Of a stretch of DNA of 10,016 bases, positions 113 to 9,630 are shown one piece after another. Within the stretch, counting starts at the first letter, position 1, and each line of letters begins with the position of its first letter. Below the pieces are notes generated by a model, which was not told the DNA's origin, ran no database searches, and was given only the letters and a program-made list of their open reading frames with translations. The stretch lies in the NCBI GenBank assembly GCA_943328885.2, contig CALQBT020000057.1:1-10016 (forward strand), written 5' to 3'. The DNA comes from Bordetella parapertussis (GTDB lineage Bacteria; Pseudomonadota; Gammaproteobacteria; Burkholderiales; Burkholderiaceae_C). The position numbers were made by a program, and so were the translations under genes.

Positions 113-1120
113 ATGCAAGCTCAAGTCATTCGAGGCCACGGACAAATCGACGACATCGTCTTCGAGACCCATTGGCCTCAGCCTATTGCGCGCTCGGGCG
201 AGGTCGTGCTCAAGGTCAAGGCCTGCTCACTCAATTACCACGACCTGTTCACGCTGCGCGGTATGCCAGGCATCAAGCTGCAAATGCCCTTGATCATGGG
301 CATCGATGTGTCTGGCGACGTGGCCGAAATCGGCCCCGACGTCAGCGGCTGGGACATTGGGGCTCGGGTGATGGTCGACCCGATCCACCGCAAGCTCGGC
401 AAGCTGCTGGGAGAGGCCATGGACGGTGGCCTCGCTGAGTATGTTCGCGTCGATGCCTCTCAACTGATTCCGCTGCCTGCCGACGTGTCGTATGAGCAGG
501 CGGCAGCCCTGCCCGTCGCGTACGGCACCGCCTACCGCATGATGCTTGCGCGCGGCAAGATCAAAGAGGGCGAGAAGGTGCTGATCCTCGGCGCTTCCGG
601 CGGCGTGGGTACCTGCTGCGTGCAACTGGCCAAGCTGGCCGGCGCTCATGTGATCGTCGCGGCCTCCAGCGACGAAAAACTCGAGCGGCTGAAAGCGCTC
701 GGCGCAGACGAAGGCATCAACTACAAGACAGATGACTTCATGAAGGAGATCTTCAAGCGCCACGGCAAACCGACCTTCTTCGGCGGCAGCACAGGCATCG
801 ACGTGGTCGTGAACTTCACGGGCGGCGACACCTGGGTGCCCTCGCTGCGCTGCCTGCGCAACGATGGCCGCCTGCTGACTTGCGGGGCCACCGCGGGCTT
901 CGACCCCAAGGAAGACATTCGCTACATTTGGACCTTCGAGTTGAACATCATCGGGTCGAATGGCTGGGGGCCTCCCGACCTGACAGATCTGCTCGATCTG
1001 GTGCGCAGCGGCAAACTCAAACCCGTGATCGACCAGACGCTGCCACTCAAGGAAGCACGCACGGCCTTCCGACGCTTGGATGAACGCGCCGTGTTCGGCA
1101 AGGTCATCGTCGCACCCTGA
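113..1120 (+). CDS. Zinc-independent medium-chain dehydrogenase / quinone oxidoreductase-like protein
   Basis: This is a 335-residue medium-chain dehydrogenase/reductase that should transfer hydride between NAD(P)H and an alcohol, enone or quinone-type substrate in the cytoplasm. Residues about 25-125 form the GroES-like domain. The nucleotide-binding motif GASGGVG is at 160-166 in the Rossmann domain, followed by a helix QLAKLAG. The usual catalytic zinc ligands are absent: the first Cys position reads SLNYHDL (39-45) and the GHE position reads GID (63-65). No four-cysteine structural zinc lobe is seen, so it belongs with the zinc-free quinone-oxidoreductase side of the family. An in-frame TTG at 86 would add nine residues, but the ATG at 113 gives the usual family N-terminus; neither has a clear ribosome site. 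Its stop overlaps an upstream in-frame ATG of the next gene. Context suggests a catabolic step on an acyl-CoA or related intermediate (inference). Confidence 0.85.
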   Translation: MQAQVIRGHGQIDDIVFETHWPQPIARSGEVVLKVKACSLNYHDLFTLRGMPGIKLQMPLIMGIDVSGDVAEIGPDVSGWDIGARVMVDPIHRKLGKLLGEAMDGGLAEYVRVDASQLIPLPADVSYEQAAALPVAYGTAYRMMLARGKIKEGEKVLILGASGGVGTCCVQLAKLAGAHVIVAASSDEKLERLKALGADEGINYKTDDFMKEIFKRHGKPTFFGGSTGIDVVVNFTGGDTWVPSLRCLRNDGRLLTCGATAGFDPKEDIRYIWTFELNIIGSNGWGPPDLTDLLDLVRSGKLKPVIDQTLPLKEARTAFRRLDERAVFGKVIVAP

Positions 1121-1145
1121 TGGTGTTCGCCCCTTCACCCTTCGC

Positions 1146-1149
1146 GGAG
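1146..1149 (+). promoter_or_regulatory. Ribosome binding site deciding the start of the binding-protein gene
   Basis: GGAG lies six bases before the ATG at 1156. It favours this start over the in-frame ATG at 1120 that overlaps the previous stop. Starting at 1156 also gives a clean secretion signal directly from the first residue. Confidence 0.65.
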
Positions 1150-1155
1150 TCATTC

Positions 1156-2277
1156 ATGAAGAAATTCATTCTTTCAACGGCCTTGGCCGCCATCGCCTTC
1201 TGCCTCAGCAGCACGCCTGCCATGGCGCAGACCAAAGAGGTCAAGTTCGGTTGCTATGTGCCGCTGACCGGTCAACTGGCGATCTTCGGCAAGAGCATGC
1301 AATCGGGCTTTGAGATGGCCATCGACGAGTTCCAAAAGTCTCCAAAGTCCAATGGCATCAAGTTCACGATTCAGTGCGAAGACGACCAAGGGCGCGCGGA
1401 CGACGGCATCAACATCGCGCGAAAGTTGGTCGAAGACAAATCACTGATGGCCGTGATCGGCAGCTGGTCGTCCACCGTGACACTGGCAGCAGGCCCCATC
1501 TACAACCAGGCCAAAATGGTCAACATCACGCCGGTTTCCTCGCATCCAGACGTCACCAAGGTTGGCCCCTATATGTTCCGCCAAAGCCTGGTGCAAAGCC
1601 AGGAAGGCGCGTTCAACGGCGACACCTTGTGGAAGCTGGGTGCCCGCAAGATCGCCATCATCGGCATCCCGAACGACTACGGCATTGCCAACACCTCGCT
1701 GACCAAACGCGGGTTCGAGGCCAAAGGTGGCAAGGTAGTTTTCGAAGAACTGGTTCGGCCTGACGCCCAGGATTTTCGCCAAACGCTGCAGAAAGCGGTG
1801 CGCGAGAACCCCGATTGGATCTACATCGGTGCCTTCGCACCGCAGACCGCGCTGATGCTCAAGCAACTGCGCCAAATGGGCATCAAGACACCGACCTATG
1901 TCTGCGCCGCAGACGACACGCCCGATCTCGCCCGCTTGGCCGGCGCCGATGCGATCGAGGGCGTGCATGTCACGGTGCAAACCAACCCGGCGCTCGGGCC
2001 TGAGCTGGCAGATTTCTACAAGCGTTACAACGCGCGCTACAACCGCCTGCCCGACCCCTTCGCATCGAACTCGTACAACACAGCGATGATGATGATGACC
2101 GTCGCCGCCGGGCAGTTCCCGAACGTCGACCGTGAATCGCTGCGCAAAGGGCTTGACGACATGCGCAGCTTTGACGGCATCTTCGGCAAGATCAAATACG
2201 ATCCGGCCGCACGCGAATGGGAATTCAAGCTGATGCACGGTGTGCTGCAAGGCGGCAGCACCAAGATCGTCGATTGA
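1156..2277 (+). CDS. Branched-chain amino acid (HAAT) family ABC transporter periplasmic binding protein
   Basis: The 373-residue product is a LivK-like periplasmic binding protein that captures a solute and hands it to the LivHMGF complex encoded next. Residues 1-24 form a Sec signal peptide: MKK, a hydrophobic stretch, then AMA before Gln25. The mature protein opens with KEVKFGCYVPLTGQLAIFGK, the typical first strand and ligand loop of the type I Leu/Ile/Val-binding fold. The inter-lobe stretches VIGSWSSTVTLAA and NITPVSSHPDVT match places where the family binds the ligand carboxylate and amino groups. Length is normal. HAAT binding proteins linked to acyl-CoA ligases often take aromatic or dicarboxylic acids rather than amino acids, and the neighbours here hint at this, but the ligand is not determined. 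Confidence 0.9.
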   Translation: MKKFILSTALAAIAFCLSSTPAMAQTKEVKFGCYVPLTGQLAIFGKSMQSGFEMAIDEFQKSPKSNGIKFTIQCEDDQGRADDGINIARKLVEDKSLMAVIGSWSSTVTLAAGPIYNQAKMVNITPVSSHPDVTKVGPYMFRQSLVQSQEGAFNGDTLWKLGARKIAIIGIPNDYGIANTSLTKRGFEAKGGKVVFEELVRPDAQDFRQTLQKAVRENPDWIYIGAFAPQTALMLKQLRQMGIKTPTYVCAADDTPDLARLAGADAIEGVHVTVQTNPALGPELADFYKRYNARYNRLPDPFASNSYNTAMMMMTVAAGQFPNVDRESLRKGLDDMRSFDGIFGKIKYDPAAREWEFKLMHGVLQGGSTKIVD

Positions 2278-2289
2278 GTTTCGCAAGCC

Positions 2290-3201
2290 GTGGTTTTTGA
2301 CGCGTTTGTGCTCGGCCAGCTCGCCATCGGCGCGAGCGTGGGCATGACCTATTCGATTGTGGCGATCGGGCTGACCCTGATCTACCGCGTGCTGTCTGCG
2401 GCGAACTTCGCGCACGGCGAGGTCTACACGATCGGCGCGTTCGCAACGCTGATTGGCGCGACGACCTTGAAGCTACCGCTGTGGGCGATTGCCCCCTTGG
2501 TGCTGTGCGTTGGGATGCTGTTCGGCTGGGCCATCGAACGCGCCGCGTTCAGGCCATTTCGAAAATTCACAGACGAGGCCTCGTTGAAGTCGCGCGCGGT
2601 GCGCGAAGCCACGCTGCTGTCTTCGTTTGCGCTGGGATTGATCGTGCGGGAATTTCTCGACCAGATCTACCATGGCGAATGGCTGGCCATTCCGCAGGAA
2701 TTTCTGTTGAACCAACCCGTGGATTTCGGCGACATCCATTTGTCCATCGGTGAAGTGCTGATCGCCGTGGTGTCGCTGGCCATGTTGGTGGCCTTGCAGG
2801 TCTTGCTCTACCGCACCCGCATCGGCATCGCCATTCGCGCGGTGTCTTCCAATCTGGTGGGGGCGCAGTTCTCGGGCATCGACATCAACCGGGTGATTGT
2901 TGCGGTCTTCATCGTCGGCTCCTTGCTGGGCACCGTGGCGGGCATGGTCGTCTCGCTCGCCTATGGCAACGTGCAGTCGTTCATGGGGCTGACGGTGGTG
3001 ATCAAAGCCTTTGTCGCGATGGTCATCGGTGGCCTCACCAGCTTGCCCGGCGCCGTCATTGCCGGCATTCTGATCGGCCTGGCGGAAGCCACGGCGGGCA
3101 TTTTCTTGCCCAGCGCGTGGACCGAGATGGTGGCCTATGCCATGCTCCTTCTGACCTTGCTGCTGCTGCCGCAAGGGCTGTTCGGTCAACGGCGAAGCTG
3201 A
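2290..3201 (+). CDS. livH: LivH-like ABC transporter permease
   Basis: This is a 303-residue inner-membrane permease, one of the two channel subunits of the HAAT importer. The signature NFAHGE at 39-44, after a first helix with TYSIVAIGLTLIYRVL, is the hallmark of LivH proteins (usually NFAHGD or NFAQGE). Further hydrophobic segments follow through to the end, and IGGLTSLPGAVIAGILIGL near the C-terminus matches the conserved family region. The start is GTG at 2290, 13 bases after the previous stop, with no strong ribosome site. The next in-frame ATG at 2344 would remove half of the first helix, so GTG is preferred. Its stop is directly adjacent to the ATG of the next permease gene, implying coupled translation. 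Confidence 0.9.
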   Translation: MVFDAFVLGQLAIGASVGMTYSIVAIGLTLIYRVLSAANFAHGEVYTIGAFATLIGATTLKLPLWAIAPLVLCVGMLFGWAIERAAFRPFRKFTDEASLKSRAVREATLLSSFALGLIVREFLDQIYHGEWLAIPQEFLLNQPVDFGDIHLSIGEVLIAVVSLAMLVALQVLLYRTRIGIAIRAVSSNLVGAQFSGIDINRVIVAVFIVGSLLGTVAGMVVSLAYGNVQSFMGLTVVIKAFVAMVIGGLTSLPGAVIAGILIGLAEATAGIFLPSAWTEMVAYAMLLLTLLLLPQGLFGQRRS

Positions 3202-4191
3202 ATGAAGCACTTCAGAATTTCCATTCGGCTGGCGTTCGCAGTGCTGCTGCTCGCGGTCGTTCCCGCGCTGCTGGCCTGGGCTGGTAGCCCCTATGTGGCG
3301 CGCCTGGCGCAGCTGGTGCTGATCACCGTGGTGCTCAGCGGCGCGCTCAACATGCTCACCGGCACGGCCGGGCTGCTGGCGCTCGACACCGTGGTGTTCT
3401 ACGGTCTGGGCGCTTACACGGCGGCGATCCTGTCGGTGAACCACGGCACCTCGTTTCTGGTGGATTTGGCGGCCGCCGTGGGAATCACCACCACGATCGG
3501 CATCATCTTTGGCTTCGCACTGGTGCGCCTGACCAGCATCTTTTTCGCAGTGGCCACGATGGCGCTCGCCATCTCGTTTCACACCACCGTGCTGAACTGG
3601 GGCGACCTGACCCGCGGGCCCATGGGCTACCGCGGCATACCGCCCGTCCAGCTGTTCGGCCACACGCTGGGGCATTGGCTTGAGTCGTACTACCTCACGG
3701 CCATTTTCTGCCTGATCGCGCTGTTCATCTTTCACCGCGTGATGCACTCGTTCTACGGCAACGCCGTGCGCGCGGTGCGCGAAGACGAGGAGTGCGCCCG
3801 CTCTCTGGGTCTGCAGACCCGCTGGCTGCGCGTGCAGGTCTATGCGCTGCATGCAGCCATCATGGGTGCCGCCGGGGCGCTCTATGCACACACCAACCAG
3901 TTCATAGGCCCTGACAACTTCGTGCTGCTGGAGTCCGCCCTGGTGCTGACGGGCATCATCGTGGGCGGCATCGGCAGCCTGCCTGGTGCAGTGATCGGTG
4001 GCCTCGTGATGGTGTTGCTGCCCGAGGCGCTGCGCGAAATCGGCAATCTGCGTGCCTTCGCATTTGGCCTGATGCTGTTCTTGTCGATTCTGTTCCTGTC
4101 GCGCGGTCTGTTCAGCGAAGTGCGTGCGCTGGCGCTGTTTCGGCGAGACATGCCGCGCAGTCCCTGGTCGCGCCGGGGGCCGCTGCCGTGA
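3202..4191 (+). CDS. livM: LivM-like ABC transporter permease
   Basis: This is a 329-residue partner permease of the LivH-like subunit. The segment GTAGLLALDTVVFYGLGAYTAA (about 54-75 of the protein) corresponds to the GYAGLLSLGHAAFFGIGAY region of LivM. The stretch TRGPMGYRGIP (137-147) matches the conserved GGPNGI region. The cytoplasmic coupling loop that contacts the ATPases is visible at about 187-215 (AVREDEECARSLG). About eight or more hydrophobic segments are present. The last 20 residues are rich in Arg and Pro and poorly conserved in the family. The ATG follows the previous stop with no gap, and the gene ends in a GTGA overlap with the ATPase gene. Confidence 0.9.
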   Translation: MKHFRISIRLAFAVLLLAVVPALLAWAGSPYVARLAQLVLITVVLSGALNMLTGTAGLLALDTVVFYGLGAYTAAILSVNHGTSFLVDLAAAVGITTTIGIIFGFALVRLTSIFFAVATMALAISFHTTVLNWGDLTRGPMGYRGIPPVQLFGHTLGHWLESYYLTAIFCLIALFIFHRVMHSFYGNAVRAVREDEECARSLGLQTRWLRVQVYALHAAIMGAAGALYAHTNQFIGPDNFVLLESALVLTGIIVGGIGSLPGAVIGGLVMVLLPEALREIGNLRAFAFGLMLFLSILFLSRGLFSEVRALALFRRDMPRSPWSRRGPLP

Positions 4192-4982
4192 AAACACCTT
4201 CTGCGAGCAGTTCCGGCATTGCCACGCCTTTGCTGCAAGTGCACGGCCTGGCCAAGCATTTTCAGGGCTTGCGCGCTGTCGATGATGTCAGTTTCGACGT
4301 GCAGCGCGGCGAGCTGGTGGGACTGATCGGTCCCAACGGGGCTGGCAAGAGCACGCTGTTCAACTGCGTCGCTGGCGCACTGGCCCGCACGGCGGGCGAG
4401 GTCTTGTTCGAAGGACAGCGCATCGCCGGGCTCGACCCGGTGCGCATTGCGCGCCTGGGCATCGCGCGCACCTACCAGAACCTGCGCATCTTCCCTGACA
4501 TCACGGTCTTCGACAACGTCTGTGCGGGCGCGATCGGTCGAATCGGCATCTCTTTGCTCGGCGCCCTCTTGCCTGCACTGGGCCGCAAGCGGGACGAGGC
4601 CATTGCCGAAGCGACCTTGTCGGCGCTGACGCGCTTCGGTCTGCTCGAATTCGCCGACCAACCCGCAGGCAACCTGGCTTATGGCCAGAAGAAACTGCTG
4701 GAAATTGCCCGCGCCCTCACCTTGCAGCCCAAGCTGCTGCTGCTGGACGAGCCTGCGGCCGGCCTGAACAACACCGAAACCACTGAGCTCGCCACCTTGT
4801 TGCGCAGCTTGCGAGACGCCGGCCTGACCATCTTGCTGGTGGAACACGACATGCCGATGGTGATGCGCATCTGCGACCGCATCGTCGTGCTCGACAGCGG
4901 GCGCAAGATCGCCGAAGGCGCGCCGGCCGCCATCCGCGCCGACGCAGCCGTGCGCGCCGCTTACCTGGGAGACGAAGCGTGA
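4188..4982 (+). CDS. livG: LivG-like ABC transporter ATP-binding protein
   Basis: This is a 264-residue cytoplasmic ATPase that powers the HAAT importer together with the LivF-like subunit. All nucleotide-binding motifs are intact: Walker A GPNGAGKST at 48-56, Q-loop glutamine in TYQNLRIF near 97, a family-type signature NLAYGQKKLLEIARAL from 162, Walker B LLLLDEP at 183-189 with the following AAGLN, and the switch histidine in LLVEHD at 220. The YGQ form of the signature instead of LSGGQ is normal for LivG. Translation starts at a GTG that overlaps the previous TGA, so it is probably coupled to the permease. The first 14 residues precede the conserved fold and are unremarkable. Confidence 0.92.
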   Translation: MKTPSASSSGIATPLLQVHGLAKHFQGLRAVDDVSFDVQRGELVGLIGPNGAGKSTLFNCVAGALARTAGEVLFEGQRIAGLDPVRIARLGIARTYQNLRIFPDITVFDNVCAGAIGRIGISLLGALLPALGRKRDEAIAEATLSALTRFGLLEFADQPAGNLAYGQKKLLEIARALTLQPKLLLLDEPAAGLNNTETTELATLLRSLRDAGLTILLVEHDMPMVMRICDRIVVLDSGRKIAEGAPAAIRADAAVRAAYLGDEA

Positions 4983-5686
4983 ACGTGCTCCTGGTGCAGT
5001 CCTTGAGCGTCCAACTCGGCGGGCGAGCGATTCTCCACAAGGTGTCGATCCAGGTCCCCGAGGGCGGGCTCGTCACGATTCTTGGGCGCAACGGCGTGGG
5101 CAAGACCACGCTGCTGCGCACGATCTCCGGCCTGTACCGGCCGAGCGAAGGGCGCATCCTGTTGGGCGAAGCGTCCATCGCAGGCCTGTCCACGCATCAG
5201 ATCGTTCGTGCCGGCGTGGCGCAAACCCCAGAAGGCCGGCAGTTGTTCGGCGACATGAGTGTGATCGAGAACCTGCGTGCAGGCGCATTGACGCTGTCGC
5301 GGGCGCAATTCGATGAGAAGCTGGCTTATGTCAGTCAGCTGTTCCCGATCGTCGAGCAGCGCCGGCAACAAAGCGCGGGCTCCTTGTCAGGCGGCGAGCA
5401 GCAAATGGTGTGCATTGCGCGGGCGTTGATGGGTTCGCCCCGCTTGTTGCTGCTCGACGAGCCCTCGCTCGGCCTGGCACCTAAGATCGTGACGCGAATT
5501 TTCGAGTTGATTGCCTCGATCCGCGCCTCTGGCGTCGCGGTGCTGCTGGTCGAGCAGAACGCGCGCCTGGCGCTGCGCACCGCCGACTATGCCTACATCC
5601 TGGACCAAGGCCGGGTTGCACTGGAAGGCCCCGCCCGCGATCTGGTCGACGATGAGCGCGTGGCCTCGGCCTATCTTGGCGCTTGA
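4979..5686 (+). CDS. livF: LivF-like ABC transporter ATP-binding protein
   Basis: This is a 235-residue second ATPase of the importer. Motifs in order: Walker A GRNGVGKTT at 36-44, the LivF-specific PEGRQLF at 84-90, signature LSGGEQQM at 136-143, Walker B LLLLDEP at 156-162 followed by SLGLAP, and LLVEQNA at 189-195. In LivF the histidine of the switch region is replaced by glutamine, as here, so this is not a defect. The GTG start overlaps the LivG-like stop as GTGA, and a GGGAG at 4967-4971 sits seven bases upstream as a ribosome site. It is the last transporter gene; a 48-base gap separates it from the next oxidoreductase. Confidence 0.92.
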   Translation: MNVLLVQSLSVQLGGRAILHKVSIQVPEGGLVTILGRNGVGKTTLLRTISGLYRPSEGRILLGEASIAGLSTHQIVRAGVAQTPEGRQLFGDMSVIENLRAGALTLSRAQFDEKLAYVSQLFPIVEQRRQQSAGSLSGGEQQMVCIARALMGSPRLLLLDEPSLGLAPKIVTRIFELIASIRASGVAVLLVEQNARLALRTADYAYILDQGRVALEGPARDLVDDERVASAYLGA

Positions 5687-5734: not shown

Positions 5735-6496
5735 ATGTACGGACTTGAAGGAAAAATCGCCGTGGTGACCGGCGCCAGCCGGGGCATCGGCAAACAAACA
5801 GCGCTGCGACTGGCGGCCGCTGGCGCGACCGTGGTGGTGCACTACCGCAACCGCCAGTCTTCAGCAGATGAGGTGGTGCAGCAGATTGAAGCCCAAGGCG
5901 GGACGGCTTTCACCATCCAAGCAGACTTCTCTGAGGCCGCTGGCCCGCGCACTTTCTACCAGCGCCTGGACCCCGAGTTGCAGCAGCGCTTCGGCTCGAA
6001 CCAGTTCGATATTCTGGTCAACAACGCCGGTGCAGGCACGCGAACCGTGATCGAGGAGGTGAGCGAAGAAGAGTTGGATGAGACGCTGCAGGTCGATCTG
6101 AAGTCGCCGTTCTTTCTCATCAAACACGCGTCTTCGCGCCTTCGCAACAACGGGCGCATCGTCAACGTGTCGTCGATGGGAACGCGCGTCGCCTACCCAG
6201 AGATGGCGGCCTATGCGGCAGCCAAAGCCGGACTGGAGGCGCTGACCTTGATGTTGGCCCCGCATTTCGGGCCGCGCGGCATCACCATCAACGCCGTCCT
6301 GCCGGGTGCAACGGCCACCGACATGAACCCGGGCGCCACCGACCCGGTGCGCAGCCTGGAGATTGCGCAGACCATCGCGCTGCGGCGCGTGGGCCAGCCC
6401 GAGGACATCGCTGACGTCATTGTTTTTCTGGCGGGCGAAGGCGGGCGCTGGATCACGGGCCAGCGCATCGACACCAGCGGCGGTCAGCGGATCTGA
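5735..6496 (+). CDS. Short-chain dehydrogenase/reductase (SDR) family oxidoreductase
   Basis: This is a 253-residue classical SDR of normal length. It has the cofactor motif TGASRGIG at 12-19, NNAG at 96-99, catalytic Ser147 in NVSS, and Tyr160 and Lys164 in YAAAK. The region after it (LPGATATDM) matches the usual PG motif. Such enzymes interconvert an alcohol and a ketone with NAD(P)H in the cytoplasm; Arg16 and the stretch HYRNR (36-40) after strand two lean towards NADP(H), which is an inference. Relatives are often annotated as 3-oxoacyl-ACP reductases (FabG-like), but genes placed beside acyl-CoA ligases frequently act on CoA-bound intermediates. It follows the transporter by 48 bases on the same strand and is probably the last gene of the catabolic operon. 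Confidence 0.9.
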   Translation: MYGLEGKIAVVTGASRGIGKQTALRLAAAGATVVVHYRNRQSSADEVVQQIEAQGGTAFTIQADFSEAAGPRTFYQRLDPELQQRFGSNQFDILVNNAGAGTRTVIEEVSEEELDETLQVDLKSPFFLIKHASSRLRNNGRIVNVSSMGTRVAYPEMAAYAAAKAGLEALTLMLAPHFGPRGITINAVLPGATATDMNPGATDPVRSLEIAQTIALRRVGQPEDIADVIVFLAGEGGRWITGQRIDTSGGQRI

Positions 6497-6516: not shown

Positions 6517-6601
6517 TGATCCTAAAATCCACGCGCCTGCGGCATCGGTAGCTTGGATTTGGATGCCCGACTCTTTCAACGCCGCATTCGCGCGGCCACT
6601 C

Positions 6602-6608
6602 AAAGGAG
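6602..6608 (+). promoter_or_regulatory. Ribosome binding site deciding a GTG start for the selenoprotein
   Basis: AAAGGAG is five bases before GTG 6614, in the same frame as an upstream ATG at 6563 that lacks such a site. This makes 6614 the better start. Confidence 0.7.
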
Positions 6609-6613
6609 ATCAA

Positions 6614-7708
6614 GTGATCACCGTTCTCAATGAACAACGCGAAACGCGTCCAGCCCATGCGCTGGCAGAAGGCGACTCGCTGTGGCTGGACCGCAGCGAG
6701 ATCGAGGCTGCGACGGGCTGGAGCTGGACGCCCGAAGGCCTGTGCCAGGGTGACCTGTGCACGCCCTTGCCGCGCCACAGCGCCAAGCCGATGGTGCGTG
6801 GCGACCAGCTCGACATCGCTGCGCTCTGGCAACACATGGGCCATCCGGTCGAACACGATTCGGCGGGCCAGACCTGGGTGCTGGGAACAGCTGCTGCAGC
6901 GCGAGCACAAGCGCTGTCCACGCTCGAGGCGCCTGACTTCGAATTGCCCGACCTTGAGGGCCGCACGCATCGACTCTCAGACTACCGCGGCAAAAAGGTC
7001 TTGCTGGCGACCTGGGCCTCTTGGTGAGGGTGTAGAGCCGACCTGTCCGTGTGGCAGGTACTGTTCGACGAACTCAAGTCGCAAGGCTTCGTGATCCTGG
7101 CGGTGGCCACCGACCAGGCAGAGCCGGCGCGGCCCTGGATCGAGGCCGCCAAGCCAAGCTATCCCTGCCTGATCGACCGTGACCATCACGTTGCCGACCT
7201 CTATGGCCTGGTCAACGTGCCGCAGGCGGTGTGGATCGACGAGCAAGGCCACATCGTGCGTCCGCCAGAGACCGCTGGCTCCACCGATGGCTTTCGGGGC
7301 ATGGACCGCAAGACCTTCACGCTGTCCGAGGCGATCATCGCCGAGCGCGAACGCATCAAGTCGCTGTACCTCGATGCGGTCCGTGACTGGGTCGCCAAAG
7401 GCGCGAAGAGCAAACACGTGCTCTCGCCGCAGGCTGCGCAGGCAAGAGTGAAGGCTGCCGATCCGGCAATCGGGCGGGCGCATGCGCTGTTCCGTCTCGG
7501 CCAGCACCTGTTGCGCGAGGGCCAGGCCGACGAAGCGGCGCAGCGCTTCGCCCAAGCCATCGAACTGCATCCAGACTCCTGGAACGTCTGGCGCCAGACC
7601 GCGCAGAAAGACGCTCGCGGACTGGCTGCCGGCCCCGCGTTCTGGGCTCGCGTCGATGCGCTAGGCCATCGACCGTACTACCTGCCGATCGAGATGGCAG
7701 GCGTTTGA
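6614..7708 (+). CDS. Selenocysteine-containing redoxin (Sec-Gly-Cys thioredoxin-fold protein) with TPR-like tail; TGA 7025-7027 read as Sec
   Basis: Reading the single in-frame TGA at 7025-7027 as selenocysteine gives one 364-residue protein. Residues 1-90 form an N-terminal domain with C44 and C49 in GLCQGDLC. A redoxin/TlpA-like thioredoxin fold begins near 105 (APDFELPDLEGRTHRLSDYR). The active site reads LLATWASW-Sec138-Gly-Cys140-Arg, with Sec exactly at the first catalytic Cys position. A cis-proline (NVPQAVWID, Pro203) and the usual strands follow. Residues about 288-330 (GRAHALFRLGQHLLREGQAD onward) look like a TPR repeat. Sequence after the TGA continues the fold in the same frame with no gap, and a SECIS-like hairpin lies just behind it. 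No signal peptide is visible, so a cytoplasmic thiol or peroxide reductase role is likely (inference). Function needs selA, selB and selC elsewhere in the genome. Alternative: a nonsense mutation in a Cys gene, less likely given position and hairpin. Confidence 0.85.
7028..7060 (+). promoter_or_regulatory. Bacterial SECIS element (selenocysteine insertion hairpin)
   Basis: Behind the TGA the mRNA can form ACCUG (7041-7045) with CAGGU (7055-7059), a single bulged U (7046), CC (7047-7048) with GG (7053-7054), and a four-base loop GUGU (7049-7052). The bulged U just below a two-pair upper stem, and a loop that begins with G, are the features SelB recognises in the E. coli fdhF SECIS. Twenty-one bases separate the TGA from the loop, against 17 in fdhF by my count. 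The element lies within the coding frame (GCRADLSVWQV), as bacterial SECIS elements do. Confidence 0.8.
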
Positions 7709-7710
7709 GC

Positions 7711-7727
7711 CTGGTAGGGCCTGCCAG
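7711..7727 (+). terminator. Hairpin directly behind the selenoprotein stop
   Basis: Beginning three bases after the stop, CTGGTAG (7711-7717) can pair with CTGCCAG (7721-7727), including one G-U pair, around a three-base loop. There is no T-tract, so intrinsic termination is uncertain; it may protect the mRNA end. GGGCCTGCCAG (7717-7727) also has a perfect 11-base inverted copy at 7765-7775. Confidence 0.35.
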
Positions 7728-7775
7728 CCGCCTTCCGGCACGACCTGGCAAGCTCTGGCAGGCTCTGGCAGGCCC
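7717..7775. repeat. 11-base inverted repeat with tandem CTGGCAGGC copies
   Basis: GGGCCTGCCAG at 7717-7727 is mirrored perfectly by CTGGCAGGCCC at 7765-7775, 37 bases apart. The right arm is preceded by a direct copy, CTGGCAGGCT, at 7755-7764. GCCTGGTAGG occurs at both 7709-7718 and 7899-7908. These repeats make the region a candidate terminator, a recombination scar or a repetitive-element fragment. Confidence 0.5.
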
Positions 7776-7940
7776 GCAGATCGTCGAGAGGAGATCGCCC
7801 CGATGCCCTGGCTAGAGACGGGTTGGGGGCGTCACCGCGCGCCCAGGCGCAGGGGCCGAGTCGGGCCGCGATCAGGGGCTGGGACAGCCCGCCATCTGGC
7901 CTGGTAGGCCGCCTCGCTGGGCAGGTCTAGCCCACCGCGG
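7776..7940. other. Intergenic stretch without a supported gene
   Basis: No convincing coding sequence is seen. A ribosome-site-like AGAGGAGA (7787-7794) precedes ATG 7803, which opens a 34-codon frame to TAG 7905-7907. Its product is dominated by Arg, Gly and Trp and resembles nothing I recognise. The stretch may hold unrecognisable upstream remains of the beta-propeller pseudogene that follows. Confidence 0.4.
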
Positions 7941-8245
7941 GTGATCGACAAGGCGGTGGTGGTCAGCGATGGGCCAGGCACTGGCGATCAGCCCGACCGG
8001 GAAACTGGCGCTGGCAGCACTGCTGCGCGGCAACGCCGCTTCGAAGAGCGCGTGTTTCTGCCATCGCCATGGCAGCGTCGTCGCCAGGCGAATCGACGGC
8101 CAGAAAATGACCGCCACCCACGAGAAGCAGGTGCGCGGCGTGCCCGAGGGTGTGGTGTTCAGCCAGAGCGGTCGCCACGTCTATGTCGGCGACTTCATCG
8201 ATTGAAGAGCTCTCGATGCCACGGGTCGGCGGCAAGCGATGGGCT
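7941..8245 (+). pseudogene. Remnant of a YncE/YVTN-type beta-propeller protein gene
   Basis: Fragments of a beta-propeller protein occur in different frames. A frame from GTG 7941 reads VIDKAVVVSD. From 7969 a second frame reads GQALAISPTGKLALAALLRG, then HGSVVARRIDGQKM (from about 8077) and GVPEGVVFSQSGRHVYVGDF, typical blade sequences with the S-P-x-G-K and Y-V-G-x-F-I-D patterns. It ends at TGA 8203-8205, but a third frame at once continues the expected next blade as EELSMPRVGGKRW. At least two frameshifts are needed, and both the N-terminal blades and the protein end are missing. Intact relatives are periplasmic or secreted proteins of over 300 residues. There is no start with a ribosome site. 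It separates the selenoprotein from the DsrE/TusA-like genes and suggests local gene decay. Confidence 0.65.
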
Positions 8246-8301
8246 TCGATACCTCTGGGGCGCAGCACCAGGCGCCGATCGACTCGCGCTACAGTCTTGC
8301 G

Positions 8302-8700
8302 ATGTCGCCGATCGCCACCCCCCAGCCCTCTGATCCGCCCGAACCCGCCGCGCCGCGGCTGGTGATCCTGTGGGGCAGTTCGGCGTTGGATGCGGCCAGC
8401 GCTGGCGAACTCGCATTTCGCTACGCCGCAACCGCTGCCGCGATGGACATCGCGGTTGAGCTGCATGCGGTGAGCGCCGGCGCAGTTCAACACCTGGCCG
8501 AAGGCGCAACCGGTCAGGCTTTGCGGGACCGGATCCGCCAGGCCACTGAGGCAGGCGCCTGCGTCTATGTCTGCCCAGCGGCGCTCGCCGGGCAAGGCCT
8601 GGTGATGCAAGACCTGATCGAGCAGGTCTCGGGCGTGCGCGGCGCGGCGTCCTTGCTCGCTGCCGGTTTGGCGCCTGGCGCGCGGTTTCTGAACTTCTGA
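8302..8700 (+). CDS. DsrE-like family protein (first copy)
   Basis: The 132-residue product has a Pro-rich start (1-18), then LVILWGSSALDAASAGELAF, an alternating strand-helix pattern and a C-terminal GVRGAASLLA region like small DsrE/DsrF proteins. This family handles protein-bound sulfur (persulfide) or binds small ligands. Cys87 and Cys91 lie in GACVYVCPAAL; Cys91 lines up with Cys81 of the second DsrE-like protein at 9265, where a CxxC is found. The start at ATG 8302 is chosen because upstream sequence in this frame belongs to the decayed propeller gene. There is no ribosome site, and a TACAGT at 8290-8295 could be a -10 box for a near-leaderless transcript (weak). It is followed by 251 bases of structured non-coding sequence. 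Confidence 0.65.
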   Translation: MSPIATPQPSDPPEPAAPRLVILWGSSALDAASAGELAFRYAATAAAMDIAVELHAVSAGAVQHLAEGATGQALRDRIRQATEAGACVYVCPAALAGQGLVMQDLIEQVSGVRGAASLLAAGLAPGARFLNF

Positions 8701-8707
8701 CGCCCCC

Positions 8708-8743
8708 CGCGATGTGCGGTCACGGGCACATGCCACAATCGCG
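8708..8743 (+). terminator. Hairpin behind the first DsrE-like gene
   Basis: ATGTGC (8712-8717) pairs with GCACAT (8726-8731) around an eight-base loop, and CGCG at 8708-8711 can add pairs with CGCG at 8740-8743 across an internal loop. It starts seven bases past the stop codon. There is no T-tract, so it may be a terminator of another type or part of a larger structured leader for the next gene. Confidence 0.35.
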
Positions 8744-8752
8744 ACTCTTCTG

Positions 8753-8804
8753 AGCCTGCCACGCAGGATCTCAGGTCAGCGGTTCCGTGAGATCCGCGCA
8801 GGCT
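8753..8804 (+). promoter_or_regulatory. Long structured hairpin with competing pairings (possible leader RNA or attenuator)
   Basis: AGCCTGC (8753-8759) pairs with GCAGGCT (8798-8804). GC 8763-8764 pairs with GC 8796-8797. GGATCTCA (8766-8773) pairs perfectly with TGAGATCC (8788-8795) around a 14-base loop. That gives about 17 pairs with only small bulges. Two rival pairings exist: CCTGC 8755-8759 with GCAGG 8763-8767, and CTCAGGTC 8770-8777 with GACCTGAG 8830-8837. It lies 148 bases ahead of the TusA-like start. Nothing here identifies a known riboswitch class or tRNA. Confidence 0.45.
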
Positions 8805-8951
8805 TCAAGCGCCCCCGGCGCGCCTGGTCGACCTGAGTCGCTCGCGCCATCACGCCTCTAACGCCCTCGCTGAGCTCGCCGAAGACGCGGCCTGCTGCGC
8901 ATTGTTTCAACGTTCAATGGTCGCCCTGCCAGCGGCCAGTCTGTCATCCAC
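8805..8951. other. Non-coding stretch before the TusA-like gene
   Basis: No gene is supported. One frame stays open from about 8790 to TGA 8986-8988 and overlaps the TusA-like start, but its only ATG (8917) has no ribosome site. It may be the 5' untranslated region of the TusA-like gene, continuing from the hairpin at 8753-8804. Confidence 0.35.
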
Positions 8952-9173
8952 ATGCATCACGATCACGAATGGAATGCCGGCGACATGAGCTGCGGCGATC
9001 TGGTGCTGGCCTTGCGCCAGCGCATGCGCCAAGCACCGGGCCAGGTGCTCAAGCTCATCGCGCTAGACGCAGGCGCGCCGGCTGACCTGCCGGCCTGGTG
9101 CCGCATGACAGGCAATACGCTGTTGGCGCAGGACCCCGAGACCCACGCTTACTGGATTCGCGCCAAACCTTGA
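8952..9173 (+). CDS. TusA-like sulfur carrier protein with CGDL in place of CPxP
   Basis: The 73-residue product aligns along its length with TusA/SirA-type sulfur carriers, which hold persulfide sulfur on a conserved Cys and pass it between enzymes in the cytoplasm. The active-site position reads DMSCGDLVLALRQRM (11-25) with Cys14, where TusA has CPxPV. Both prolines are replaced (Gly15, Leu17) while the cysteine remains. Further matches are the GQVLKLIALDAGAPADLPAW stretch and WCRMTGNTLL with Cys50, equal to the D-x-x-x-x-D-I/L-P-x-F/W-C-x-x-x-G-H region of TusA. The start is ATG 8952, without a visible ribosome site. It has a His-rich beginning (MHHDHEW). It sits between two DsrE-like genes on the same strand. 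Confidence 0.8.
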   Translation: MHHDHEWNAGDMSCGDLVLALRQRMRQAPGQVLKLIALDAGAPADLPAWCRMTGNTLLAQDPETHAYWIRAKP

Positions 9174-9183
9174 TGTCCCCTTG

Positions 9184-9235
9184 GGCGCAGCCTGCGCCCT
9201 GATTGCCTGCCCATGGCGCAGCTTGCGCCTTGATT
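9184..9235. repeat. Two tandem copies of a palindromic motif
   Basis: GGCGCAGCCTGCGCC plus CTGATT (9184-9204) and GGCGCAGCTTGCGCC plus TTGATT (9215-9235) are near-identical 21-base units with a 31-base period. Each core is a hairpin of GGCGCA and TGCGCC around three bases. The block lies just after the TusA-like stop and 29 bases before the second DsrE-like start. It could act as paired operators, a double terminator or a small repetitive extragenic element. Confidence 0.6.
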
Positions 9236-9253
9236 CACCCCCACCACCCCTGT

Positions 9254-9258
9254 AGGAG
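9254..9258 (+). promoter_or_regulatory. Ribosome binding site of the second DsrE-like gene
   Basis: AGGAG is six bases before ATG 9265 and fixes the start. Confidence 0.7.
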
Positions 9259-9264
9259 CCCAGC

Positions 9265-9630
9265 ATGCCCGGAAAATACGTTATCAGCCTGACCCACGGT
9301 CTGGACAACACCGACAAAGCCACCGTGGCGTTCGTCGTCGCCAACGCCGCGGTCGCGTCTGACAAGGACACCGTCGTCTTTCTGTCGATCGAGGCCACCC
9401 GCTTGGCGCAGCATGGCGCTGCAGACGGTGTCCACGAAGAGGGCTTCGCGCCGCTGAAGGACTTGATGGAGAACTTCGCCAAGGCCGGCGGCCGGATTTT
9501 TGTCTGCTCGCCATGCTTCAAGAAGCGCAAGCTCGACGAGGACAAGCTGGTCGCAGGCGCGCTGATCGTCGGCGGCGCCAAGCTGGTCGAGTTCATGAGC
9601 GAAGGCGCTTGCCCGAGCATCAGCTACTGA
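9265..9630 (+). CDS. DsrE-like family protein (second copy) with CxxC
   Basis: The 121-residue product is a small cytoplasmic DsrE-type protein. It begins with a strand (KYVISLTHGLDNTDKATVAF) followed by a helix and DKDTVVFLSIEATRLA, the usual Rossmann-like order of the family. The motif FVCSPCFKKR carries Cys81 and Cys84, and GALIVGGAKLVEF leads to Cys116 near the C-terminus. In DsrE proteins a cysteine in this area carries persulfide sulfur, so a redox or sulfur-relay role with the TusA-like neighbour is plausible (inference). It starts at ATG 9265 behind AGGAG. It is followed after 14 bases by a periplasmic binding protein gene, so the two may share a transcript. Confidence 0.8.
   Translation: MPGKYVISLTHGLDNTDKATVAFVVANAAVASDKDTVVFLSIEATRLAQHGAADGVHEEGFAPLKDLMENFAKAGGRIFVCSPCFKKRKLDEDKLVAGALIVGGAKLVEFMSEGACPSISY

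What the first reader, a model, noticed from the sequence alone, without database searches (positions are those of the whole stretch)
6614..7708. Probable selenoprotein: redoxin with an in-frame TGA at the catalytic cysteine position
The frame is open from 6614 to 7708 apart from TGA 7025-7027. The TGA replaces the first Cys of a W-A-S-W-C motif, and the next codons (GCRADLSVW) continue the same fold in the same frame. A random nonsense mutation would rarely hit exactly this codon and leave the rest of the gene intact. Automatic calling would report two truncated genes.
Basis: partly seen in the sequence, partly recalled or inferred. Interest (0 to 1): 0.92.

Follow-up and report, generated by a model that had tools for sequence, protein, structure and literature searches.

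The report
Selenocysteine redoxin with UGC active site
This bacterial gene carries an in-frame UGA at the active-site position of a thioredoxin-like protein, and its relatives, a predicted RNA hairpin and the genome's selenocysteine genes indicate that the UGA is very likely read as selenocysteine; it belongs to a selenoprotein family already catalogued, so it is a real but not a new kind of find.

Summary
The frame 6614-7708 is open except for one TGA (7025-7027, residue 138 of 364) in WASW-U-GC. The host genome encodes tRNA-Sec (anticodon TCA), SelB and SelA side by side. Of 80 related loci, 74 have TGA and 6 have Cys at exactly this codon. Purifying selection is alike before and after the TGA (dN/dS 0.079 and 0.076 against a 94% relative). 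A hairpin 20 nt after the TGA fits the published bacterial SECIS model, and its place is shared by most relatives. selD was not found in this 62%-complete genome but is present in two same-genus genomes that carry the gene. The protein passes NCBIfam NF041054, 'ResA-like WAxxUGC motif-containing protein' (305.4 bits, cut-off 300), and 'UGC-containing' Prx-like selenoproteins were in print by 2008. So this is a new, probably mis-called member of a known selenoprotein family. Modest extras: an invariant second Cys pair (C44, C49), and Cys forms nested among Sec forms in the tree, which suggests repeated Sec-to-Cys change.

The parts
6604..6608 (+). Shine-Dalgarno-like AGGAG, 5 nt before the start codon
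   Evidence: read directly from the sequence
6614..7708 (+). WAxxUGC redoxin gene: GTG start, 364 residues, stop TGA 7706-7708
   Evidence: NCBIfam NF041054 305.4 bits, cut-off 300
6614..6913 (+). N-terminal domain (residues 1-100), no Pfam match, predicted mixed alpha/beta
   Evidence: no Pfam family listed at E up to 5; model, pLDDT 84-98 per block of 10
6743..6760 (+). Conserved Cys44 and Cys49 (CX4C)
   Evidence: Cys in 55 of 55 aligned proteins at both positions
6926..7258 (+). AhpC-TSA / ResA-like redoxin domain (residues 105-215)
   Evidence: Pfam PF00578 79.9 bits; Foldseek best hits are ResA structures
7025..7027 (+). TGA codon predicted to encode selenocysteine 138 in WASW-U-G-C
   Evidence: TGA in 74 of 80 related loci, Cys in 6
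7031..7033 (+). Cys140, likely partner of Sec138
   Evidence: Cys in 55 of 55 aligned proteins
7041..7059 (+). Predicted bacterial SECIS hairpin, 7 bp, apical loop CGUGU at 7048-7052, 20 nt after the TGA
   Evidence: fits the published model, -8.3 kcal/mol; loop G at 7049 in 75 of 75 Sec sequences, window included
7478..7603 (+). Weak TPR-like helical repeat (residues 289-330)
   Evidence: TPR_14 22.4 bits on the whole protein (cut-off 23.5), 23.7 bits on the downstream half; helices in the model

Best explanation
This gene encodes a 364-residue ResA-like redoxin that passes the NCBIfam WAxxUGC model, and its in-frame UGA (7025-7027) is very likely decoded as selenocysteine 138 by the host's predicted SelA, SelB and tRNA-Sec, guided by a predicted SECIS hairpin at 7041-7059. 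Inferred chemistry: the Sec138 selenolate attacks a disulfide or peroxide, probably in the cytoplasm, and is resolved by Cys140, two residues on, with the conserved Cys44/Cys49 pair a possible second relay. Shown here: the frame, the machinery genes (by profile match), the TGA/Cys pattern in relatives, purifying selection on both sides, and the shared hairpin position. Inferred: actual Sec insertion, catalytic role, substrate and location (no signal peptide is apparent by eye; no predictor was run).
For: TGA at the same codon in 74 of 80 related loci, TGC/TGT in the other 6. Host tRNA-Sec 71.1 bits against a cut-off of 47, anticodon TCA; selB 367.5 and selA 573.4 bits, over cut-off, next to it on one contig. 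selD over cut-off in same-genus G013 and G006, which carry a 94% identical full copy and a 96% identical partial copy (residues 98-364), both with the same TGA. dN/dS 0.079 upstream and 0.076 downstream of the TGA against L054. SECIS model met; Val146 GTG and Pro145 CCC, which build the loop, have the 3rd and 4th highest synonymous-constraint scores of 141 columns. NF041054 305.4 bits, cut-off 300. selA over cut-off in 34 of 40 tested genomes with the Sec form.
Against: No selD over cut-off in the host genome (best 56.8 bits, cut-off 125), which is 61.65% complete. Single-sequence folding of the region is not better than shuffles (z -0.37, -1.00 and -0.54). Only 24 of 74 Sec relatives reach -7.5 kcal/mol by the bare-stem test, although most share the placement. 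Columns 266 and 202, outside the hairpin, score higher than the loop columns for synonymous constraint. selA is over cut-off in 5 of 6 genomes with the Cys form too, so selA alone does not separate the forms. NF041054 is passed by only 5.4 bits. No protein-level evidence.
Confidence: 0.95

Rival explanations
1. A nonsense mutation or sequencing error turned a Cys codon into TGA: a pseudogene or an artefact.
For: TGA differs from TGC/TGT by one base, and Cys forms exist. One of the 74 TGA relatives (L080) has a further internal stop.
Against: The same TGA is in 74 of 80 loci on separately assembled contigs; the frame here is otherwise intact and dN/dS is about 0.08 on both sides; the Sec machinery genes are present.
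Confidence: 0.01
2. UGA is a true stop and the two halves are separate functional proteins (154 and 219 aa).
For: Both halves are listed as ORFs, and databases hold 218-231 aa proteins that cover only the downstream half (18 of the 120 listed).
Against: The stop would cut one redoxin domain at its active site. The 4 such database proteins that I read start at MWQ or VWQ, in the region just after the UGA, and the mechanical GTG start 7049 lies inside the hairpin loop. The 6 Cys relatives are open through the whole match.
Confidence: 0.02
3. UGA is read as another amino acid (Trp or near-cognate readthrough), not Sec.
For: Some readthrough of UGA is common (general knowledge).
Against: TGA also ends frames in this window, for instance the short-chain dehydrogenase frame at 6494-6496 and this gene at 7706-7708; the site is Cys in all 6 non-TGA relatives of the 80, and tRNA-Sec, selA and selB are present.
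Confidence: 0.02

Closest known systems
NCBIfam NF041054 WAxxUGC_long, 'ResA-like WAxxUGC motif-containing protein'
   Same: Same length class, same WAxxUGC motif, match over profile positions 7-316 of 354 at 305.4 bits, over the cut-off of 300.
   Different: A marginal pass: of 6 family proteins scanned, 3 pass (this one, P0038 301.0, P0057 301.2) and 3 fall below (P0002 283.3, P0121 278.2, P0054 275.7). This copy lies in an incomplete genome of which no annotation was at hand.
UGC-containing Prx-like selenoprotein (PMC2398784, 46 Sec sequences) / 'UGC-containing TlpA disulfide reductase family protein' (PMC13188914 table)
   Same: AhpC-TSA or TlpA-type fold with a U-G-C motif; reported as more abundant in nonmarine samples (passages).
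   Different: Whether those sequences have the same N-terminal domain and TPR-like tail was not checked.
ResA / TlpA thiol-disulfide oxidoreductases
   Same: Fold: best Foldseek hits are ResA (1su9, E 9.2e-12); best sequence hits in the PDB are thioredoxin-family and ResA proteins.
   Different: UGC instead of CxxC, an extra N-terminal domain with CX4C and a C-terminal helical part; scores far below the ResA model's cut-off (75.1 of 170 bits).

Membership tests
NF041054 WAxxUGC_long | Score over the curated cut-off | tested here: met
   305.4 bits, cut-off 300
NF041054 WAxxUGC_long | W-A-x-x-U/C-G-C motif (from the model's name) | tested here: met
   WASW-TGA-GC; W134, S136, W137, C/U138, G139, C140 invariant in 55 aligned proteins, A135 in at least 90%
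Bacterial selenoprotein | Host encodes tRNA-Sec, SelA, SelB | tested here: met
Bacterial selenoprotein | Host encodes SelD | tested here: inconclusive
   not over cut-off in the 61.65% complete host; present in two same-genus genomes with the gene
Bacterial selenoprotein | SECIS hairpin downstream of UGA (loop 3-9 nt, stem 4-16 bp, G in the first two loop positions, spacing 16-37 nt, -7.5 kcal/mol or lower) | tested here: met
   5-nt loop CGUGU, 7 bp, spacing 20, -8.3 kcal/mol; model from PMC13188914. The same script passes 160 of 3314 window positions by chance.
Bacterial selenoprotein | Selenium in the protein | not testable with these tools
   needs 75Se labelling or mass spectrometry
ResA (NF002854) | Score over the curated cut-off | tested here: not met
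   75.1 bits, cut-off 170
ResA (NF002854) | CxxC active site (recalled) | tested here: not met
   UGC: Cys140 is two, not three, residues after position 138
Selenoprotein peroxiredoxin (Prx, TxxU motif in the PMC13188914 table) | TxxU/TxxC motif | tested here: not met
   the three residues before U138 are A-S-W; the third before is Ala, not Thr

The most novel reading that the evidence does not exclude
The long WAxxUGC redoxins are an ancestrally selenocysteine family that keeps reverting to cysteine, against the reported bacterial trend for thiol redoxins (Cys to Sec), and they work as a four-residue relay in which Sec138-Cys140 exchanges electrons with an invariant Cys44-Cys49 pair of a domain unknown to Pfam.
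Probability: 0.35. Interest if true: 0.45.

Novelty: new member of a known kind. Interest (0 to 1): 0.3.

Why it matters
It corrects a gene that mechanical ORF calling splits in two and documents likely selenoprotein use in a lineage of Burkholderiales, with the machinery, hairpin and relatives in hand. The set of 74 Sec and 6 Cys genes also offers a thiol-redoxin family in which Sec-to-Cys change can be studied; two published accounts (PMC1794560, PMC13188914, passages) call that direction rare and mostly limited to formate dehydrogenase and SelD.

Tried and rejected
Conserved gene neighbourhood: clustering of 675 flanking ORFs of the 80 loci gave a largest cluster of 9 loci with no member within 1.5 kb, and, in the 14 clusters printed, at most 4 loci sharing a near neighbour; tblastn of 11 window proteins at E 1e-6 found only low-identity hits of common families (dehydrogenases in 5 and 6 loci, transporter parts in 1 to 4 loci, 21-44% identity among those printed) and none for the DsrE, TusA and PhnD proteins or LivH. 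So no substrate hint. Formate dehydrogenase selenoprotein as another Sec user: no hit over cut-off and no stop inside any listed match in 5 genomes. Phage origin: a scan of viral contigs found no match. Rfam on the window gave only two hits, both below gathering scores. An outgroup tree of the redoxin domain (102 rows, 116 columns) did not resolve the root inside the family, so the direction of Sec/Cys change rests on nesting only. Pfam listed nothing for residues 1-100 at E up to 5. Bare folding z-scores are unremarkable.

Full report
What is there. The + strand frame 6614-7708 is open but for TGA 7025-7027 and gives 364 residues, the TGA being residue 138 in TWASW-U-GCRADLSVW. The ORF list cuts it into 154 aa (6563-7027) and 219 aa (7049-7708). 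Read through, Pfam AhpC-TSA spans residues 105-215 (79.9 bits, cut-off 26), and each half alone matches the complementary part of that model. Codon-position GC is alike on both sides (third position 0.745 and 0.792).

Relatives at the codon. The genome-contig scan found 232 relatives and kept the best 80. At the aligned codon 74 of 80 have TGA, 5 TGC and 1 TGT (that call's tally of 77 TGA in 83 also counts the window's own copy L008 and L020/L021, which repeat L054/L055). One of the two scan patterns, WASWCGCR, can only favour Cys forms. Of the 74, 70 have no other stop in the match; L108, L112 and L126 have a TAG at the very end, likely the natural stop, and L080 has an internal TAG. In 60 relative genomes (own included) the gene is in 3 (G000, G006, G013); the other listed matches are redoxin-like and at most 63.2 bits. 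selA is over cut-off in 25 of those 60, including all 3.

Machinery. The host genome G000 (2.92 Mb, 467 contigs, 61.65% complete) has on contig C170 tRNA-Sec (1283-1374 -, 71.1 bits; ARAGORN anticodon tca), selB (1420-3315 -, 367.5 bits) and selA (3351-4703 -, 573.4 bits), so the order of transcription is selA-selB-selC. selD was not found over cut-off; the best match (56.8 bits) is an ORF that I read, from recall, as thiamine-monophosphate kinase. G013 (427.6 bits) and G006 (280.9 bits, partial) have selD and tRNA-Sec (71.0 and 69.2 bits). G013 contig C6 and the record of L054, MAG Burkholderiales bacterium Jr-14may18-272, share their length, 65,432 bases, so I take them as the same contig.

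Co-occurrence. I gave the selA search 46 of the 80 loci (40 Sec, all 6 Cys): 34 of 40 Sec and 5 of 6 Cys genomes pass the cut-off. Of the 6 Sec genomes that do not, 3 (G065, G079, G083) have a tRNA-Sec of 68 bits or more and 3 MAGs (G069, G089, G096) have no clear one. Matches of 47-49 bits, one in G089 among them, pass the cut-off but I set them aside as likely tRNA-Ser, because a tRNA-Ser in the host scores 46. Of the 6 Cys genomes, 4 have a clear tRNA-Sec; Pseudorhodoferax sp. Leaf274 (G075) has neither selA nor a clear tRNA-Sec, and G099 has selA but no clear tRNA-Sec.

Selection. Against L054 the dN/dS is 0.079 over the 137 codons before and 0.076 over the 226 codons after the TGA; against the more distant L056 it is 0.254 and 0.232. 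A dead downstream half would not look so.

Hairpin. The review PMC13188914 (passages) gives the bacterial SECIS model: loop 3-9 nt, stem 4-16 bp, a G in the first two loop positions, 16-37 nt from UGA, -7.5 kcal/mol or lower. The window has a 5-nt loop CGUGU, 7 bp, 20 nt spacing, -8.3 kcal/mol. Passes in the same script: 160 of 3314 window positions, 3 of 148 other TGAs of the window, 96 of 1324 other codons of the relatives' genes, 24 of 74 Sec relatives, 1 of 6 Cys forms (with another hairpin). Leaving the energy aside, the best hairpin of the 74 lies at exactly 20 nt with a 5-nt loop in 66, at 21 nt with a 3-nt loop in 5 and elsewhere in 3; 3 of 6 Cys forms keep a weaker hairpin at 20 nt with a 5-nt loop (-4.0 to -7.0 kcal/mol). 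In 75 Sec sequences, window included, the loop G is 75 of 75; stem changes at positions 19 and 22, counted from the T of TGA, are C or U in all but one sequence, opposite a position that is G in all but one at 33 and in all at 30, so the pair is mostly kept; and Pro145 CCC (46 of 54, 20.5 expected) and Val146 GTG (67 of 72, 35.3 expected) are strongly preferred. These z-scores (7.33, 7.80) rank 4th and 3rd of 141 columns; columns 266 (10.56) and 202 (7.97) are higher and unexplained, and relatedness inflates all of them (mean 2.1). Much of the stem is also fixed by the protein (W147, Q148), so covariation cannot be strong. Bare folding z-scores are -0.37, -1.00 and -0.54.

Protein. AlphaFold2 on 55 sequences gives mean pLDDT 95.3, pTM 0.92. 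Foldseek's best PDB hits are ResA (1su9, E 9.2e-12); the 50 rows shown of 684 with E up to 0.001 are nearly all thioredoxin-fold or peroxiredoxin proteins by title, over 114-176 columns; the ranges were not printed, so that they lie on the redoxin domain is my inference. Cys44, Cys49, position 138 and Cys140 are Cys in 55 of 55 rows, Cys185 in 45 of 55 (the tools write U as C, so U and C cannot be told apart there). The N-terminal 100 residues match no Pfam family. A weak TPR match lies at 289-330. I could not measure distances in the model.

Known or new. NCBIfam NF041054 'ResA-like WAxxUGC motif-containing protein' is passed at 305.4 bits (cut-off 300). The GOS survey (PMC2398784; passages) lists Prx-like (UGC-containing), 46 Sec sequences, more abundant in nonmarine samples; the reviews PMC9312934 and PMC13188914 (passages) list UGC-containing families. 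So the kind is known and this is one more member.

Evolution. In a tree of 76 proteins (8 of the 83 rows left out as duplicates or fragments, the window added) the 6 Cys rows need four changes: Myxococcaceae (3 rows) and Pseudorhodoferax in a 17-row, 13-Sec clade (100/100), a Dehalococcoidia row in a 15-row, 14-Sec clade (100/99), and a gammaproteobacterial row on a long branch at an unresolved fork. A reversal in the Variovorax row (L069) would trade one loss for a gain, and an outgroup tree left the root open. At least two Sec-to-Cys changes are the simplest reading. Papers PMC1794560 (passages) and PMC13188914 (passage) describe that direction as rare and mostly in formate dehydrogenase and SelD. 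My literature searches were only, so I claim no priority.

Noticed in passing
L025, - strand, 1744-1746 and 1120-1122: In another genome of the same order (G040, selA present) two neighbouring frames carry TGA at redoxin active sites: WASW-TGA-TTC (a UxxC pattern) and FTNA-TGA (a TxxU peroxiredoxin pattern), likely two further selenoproteins of known kinds.
   Followed up: partly
protein search: 18 of the 120 listed homologs are 218-231 aa long and cover only the downstream half; the 4 that I read (P0040, P0055, P0094, P0105) start at MWQ or VWQ just after the UGA region, so automatic calling probably split their genes too.
   Followed up: partly
window 8239-9630: Two DsrE-like genes and a TusA-like gene lie just downstream, a sulfur-relay-like set beside a selenoprotein gene; tblastn found none of them in the held flanks of the 80 related loci.
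   Followed up: partly
window 7709-8238: No clear gene; the ORF 7969-8205 resembles an NHL/beta-propeller repeat only weakly (E 0.092) and may be a remnant.
   Followed up: partly
family alignment, residues 266 and 202: Ser266 AGC (53 of 58, 17.1 expected) and Val202 GTG (69 of 75, 36.0 expected) show synonymous bias above the SECIS loop columns, unexplained.
   Followed up: no
L130, L131, L132: Records titled MAG Klebsiella pneumoniae carry this gene and group with gammaproteobacterial or Myxococcota-labelled MAG forms in the trees; the organism label is probably wrong.
   Followed up: no
window 1120-5686: A branched-chain amino acid ABC transporter set (periplasmic binding protein, two permeases, two ATPases) precedes a short-chain dehydrogenase gene and this gene.
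   Followed up: no
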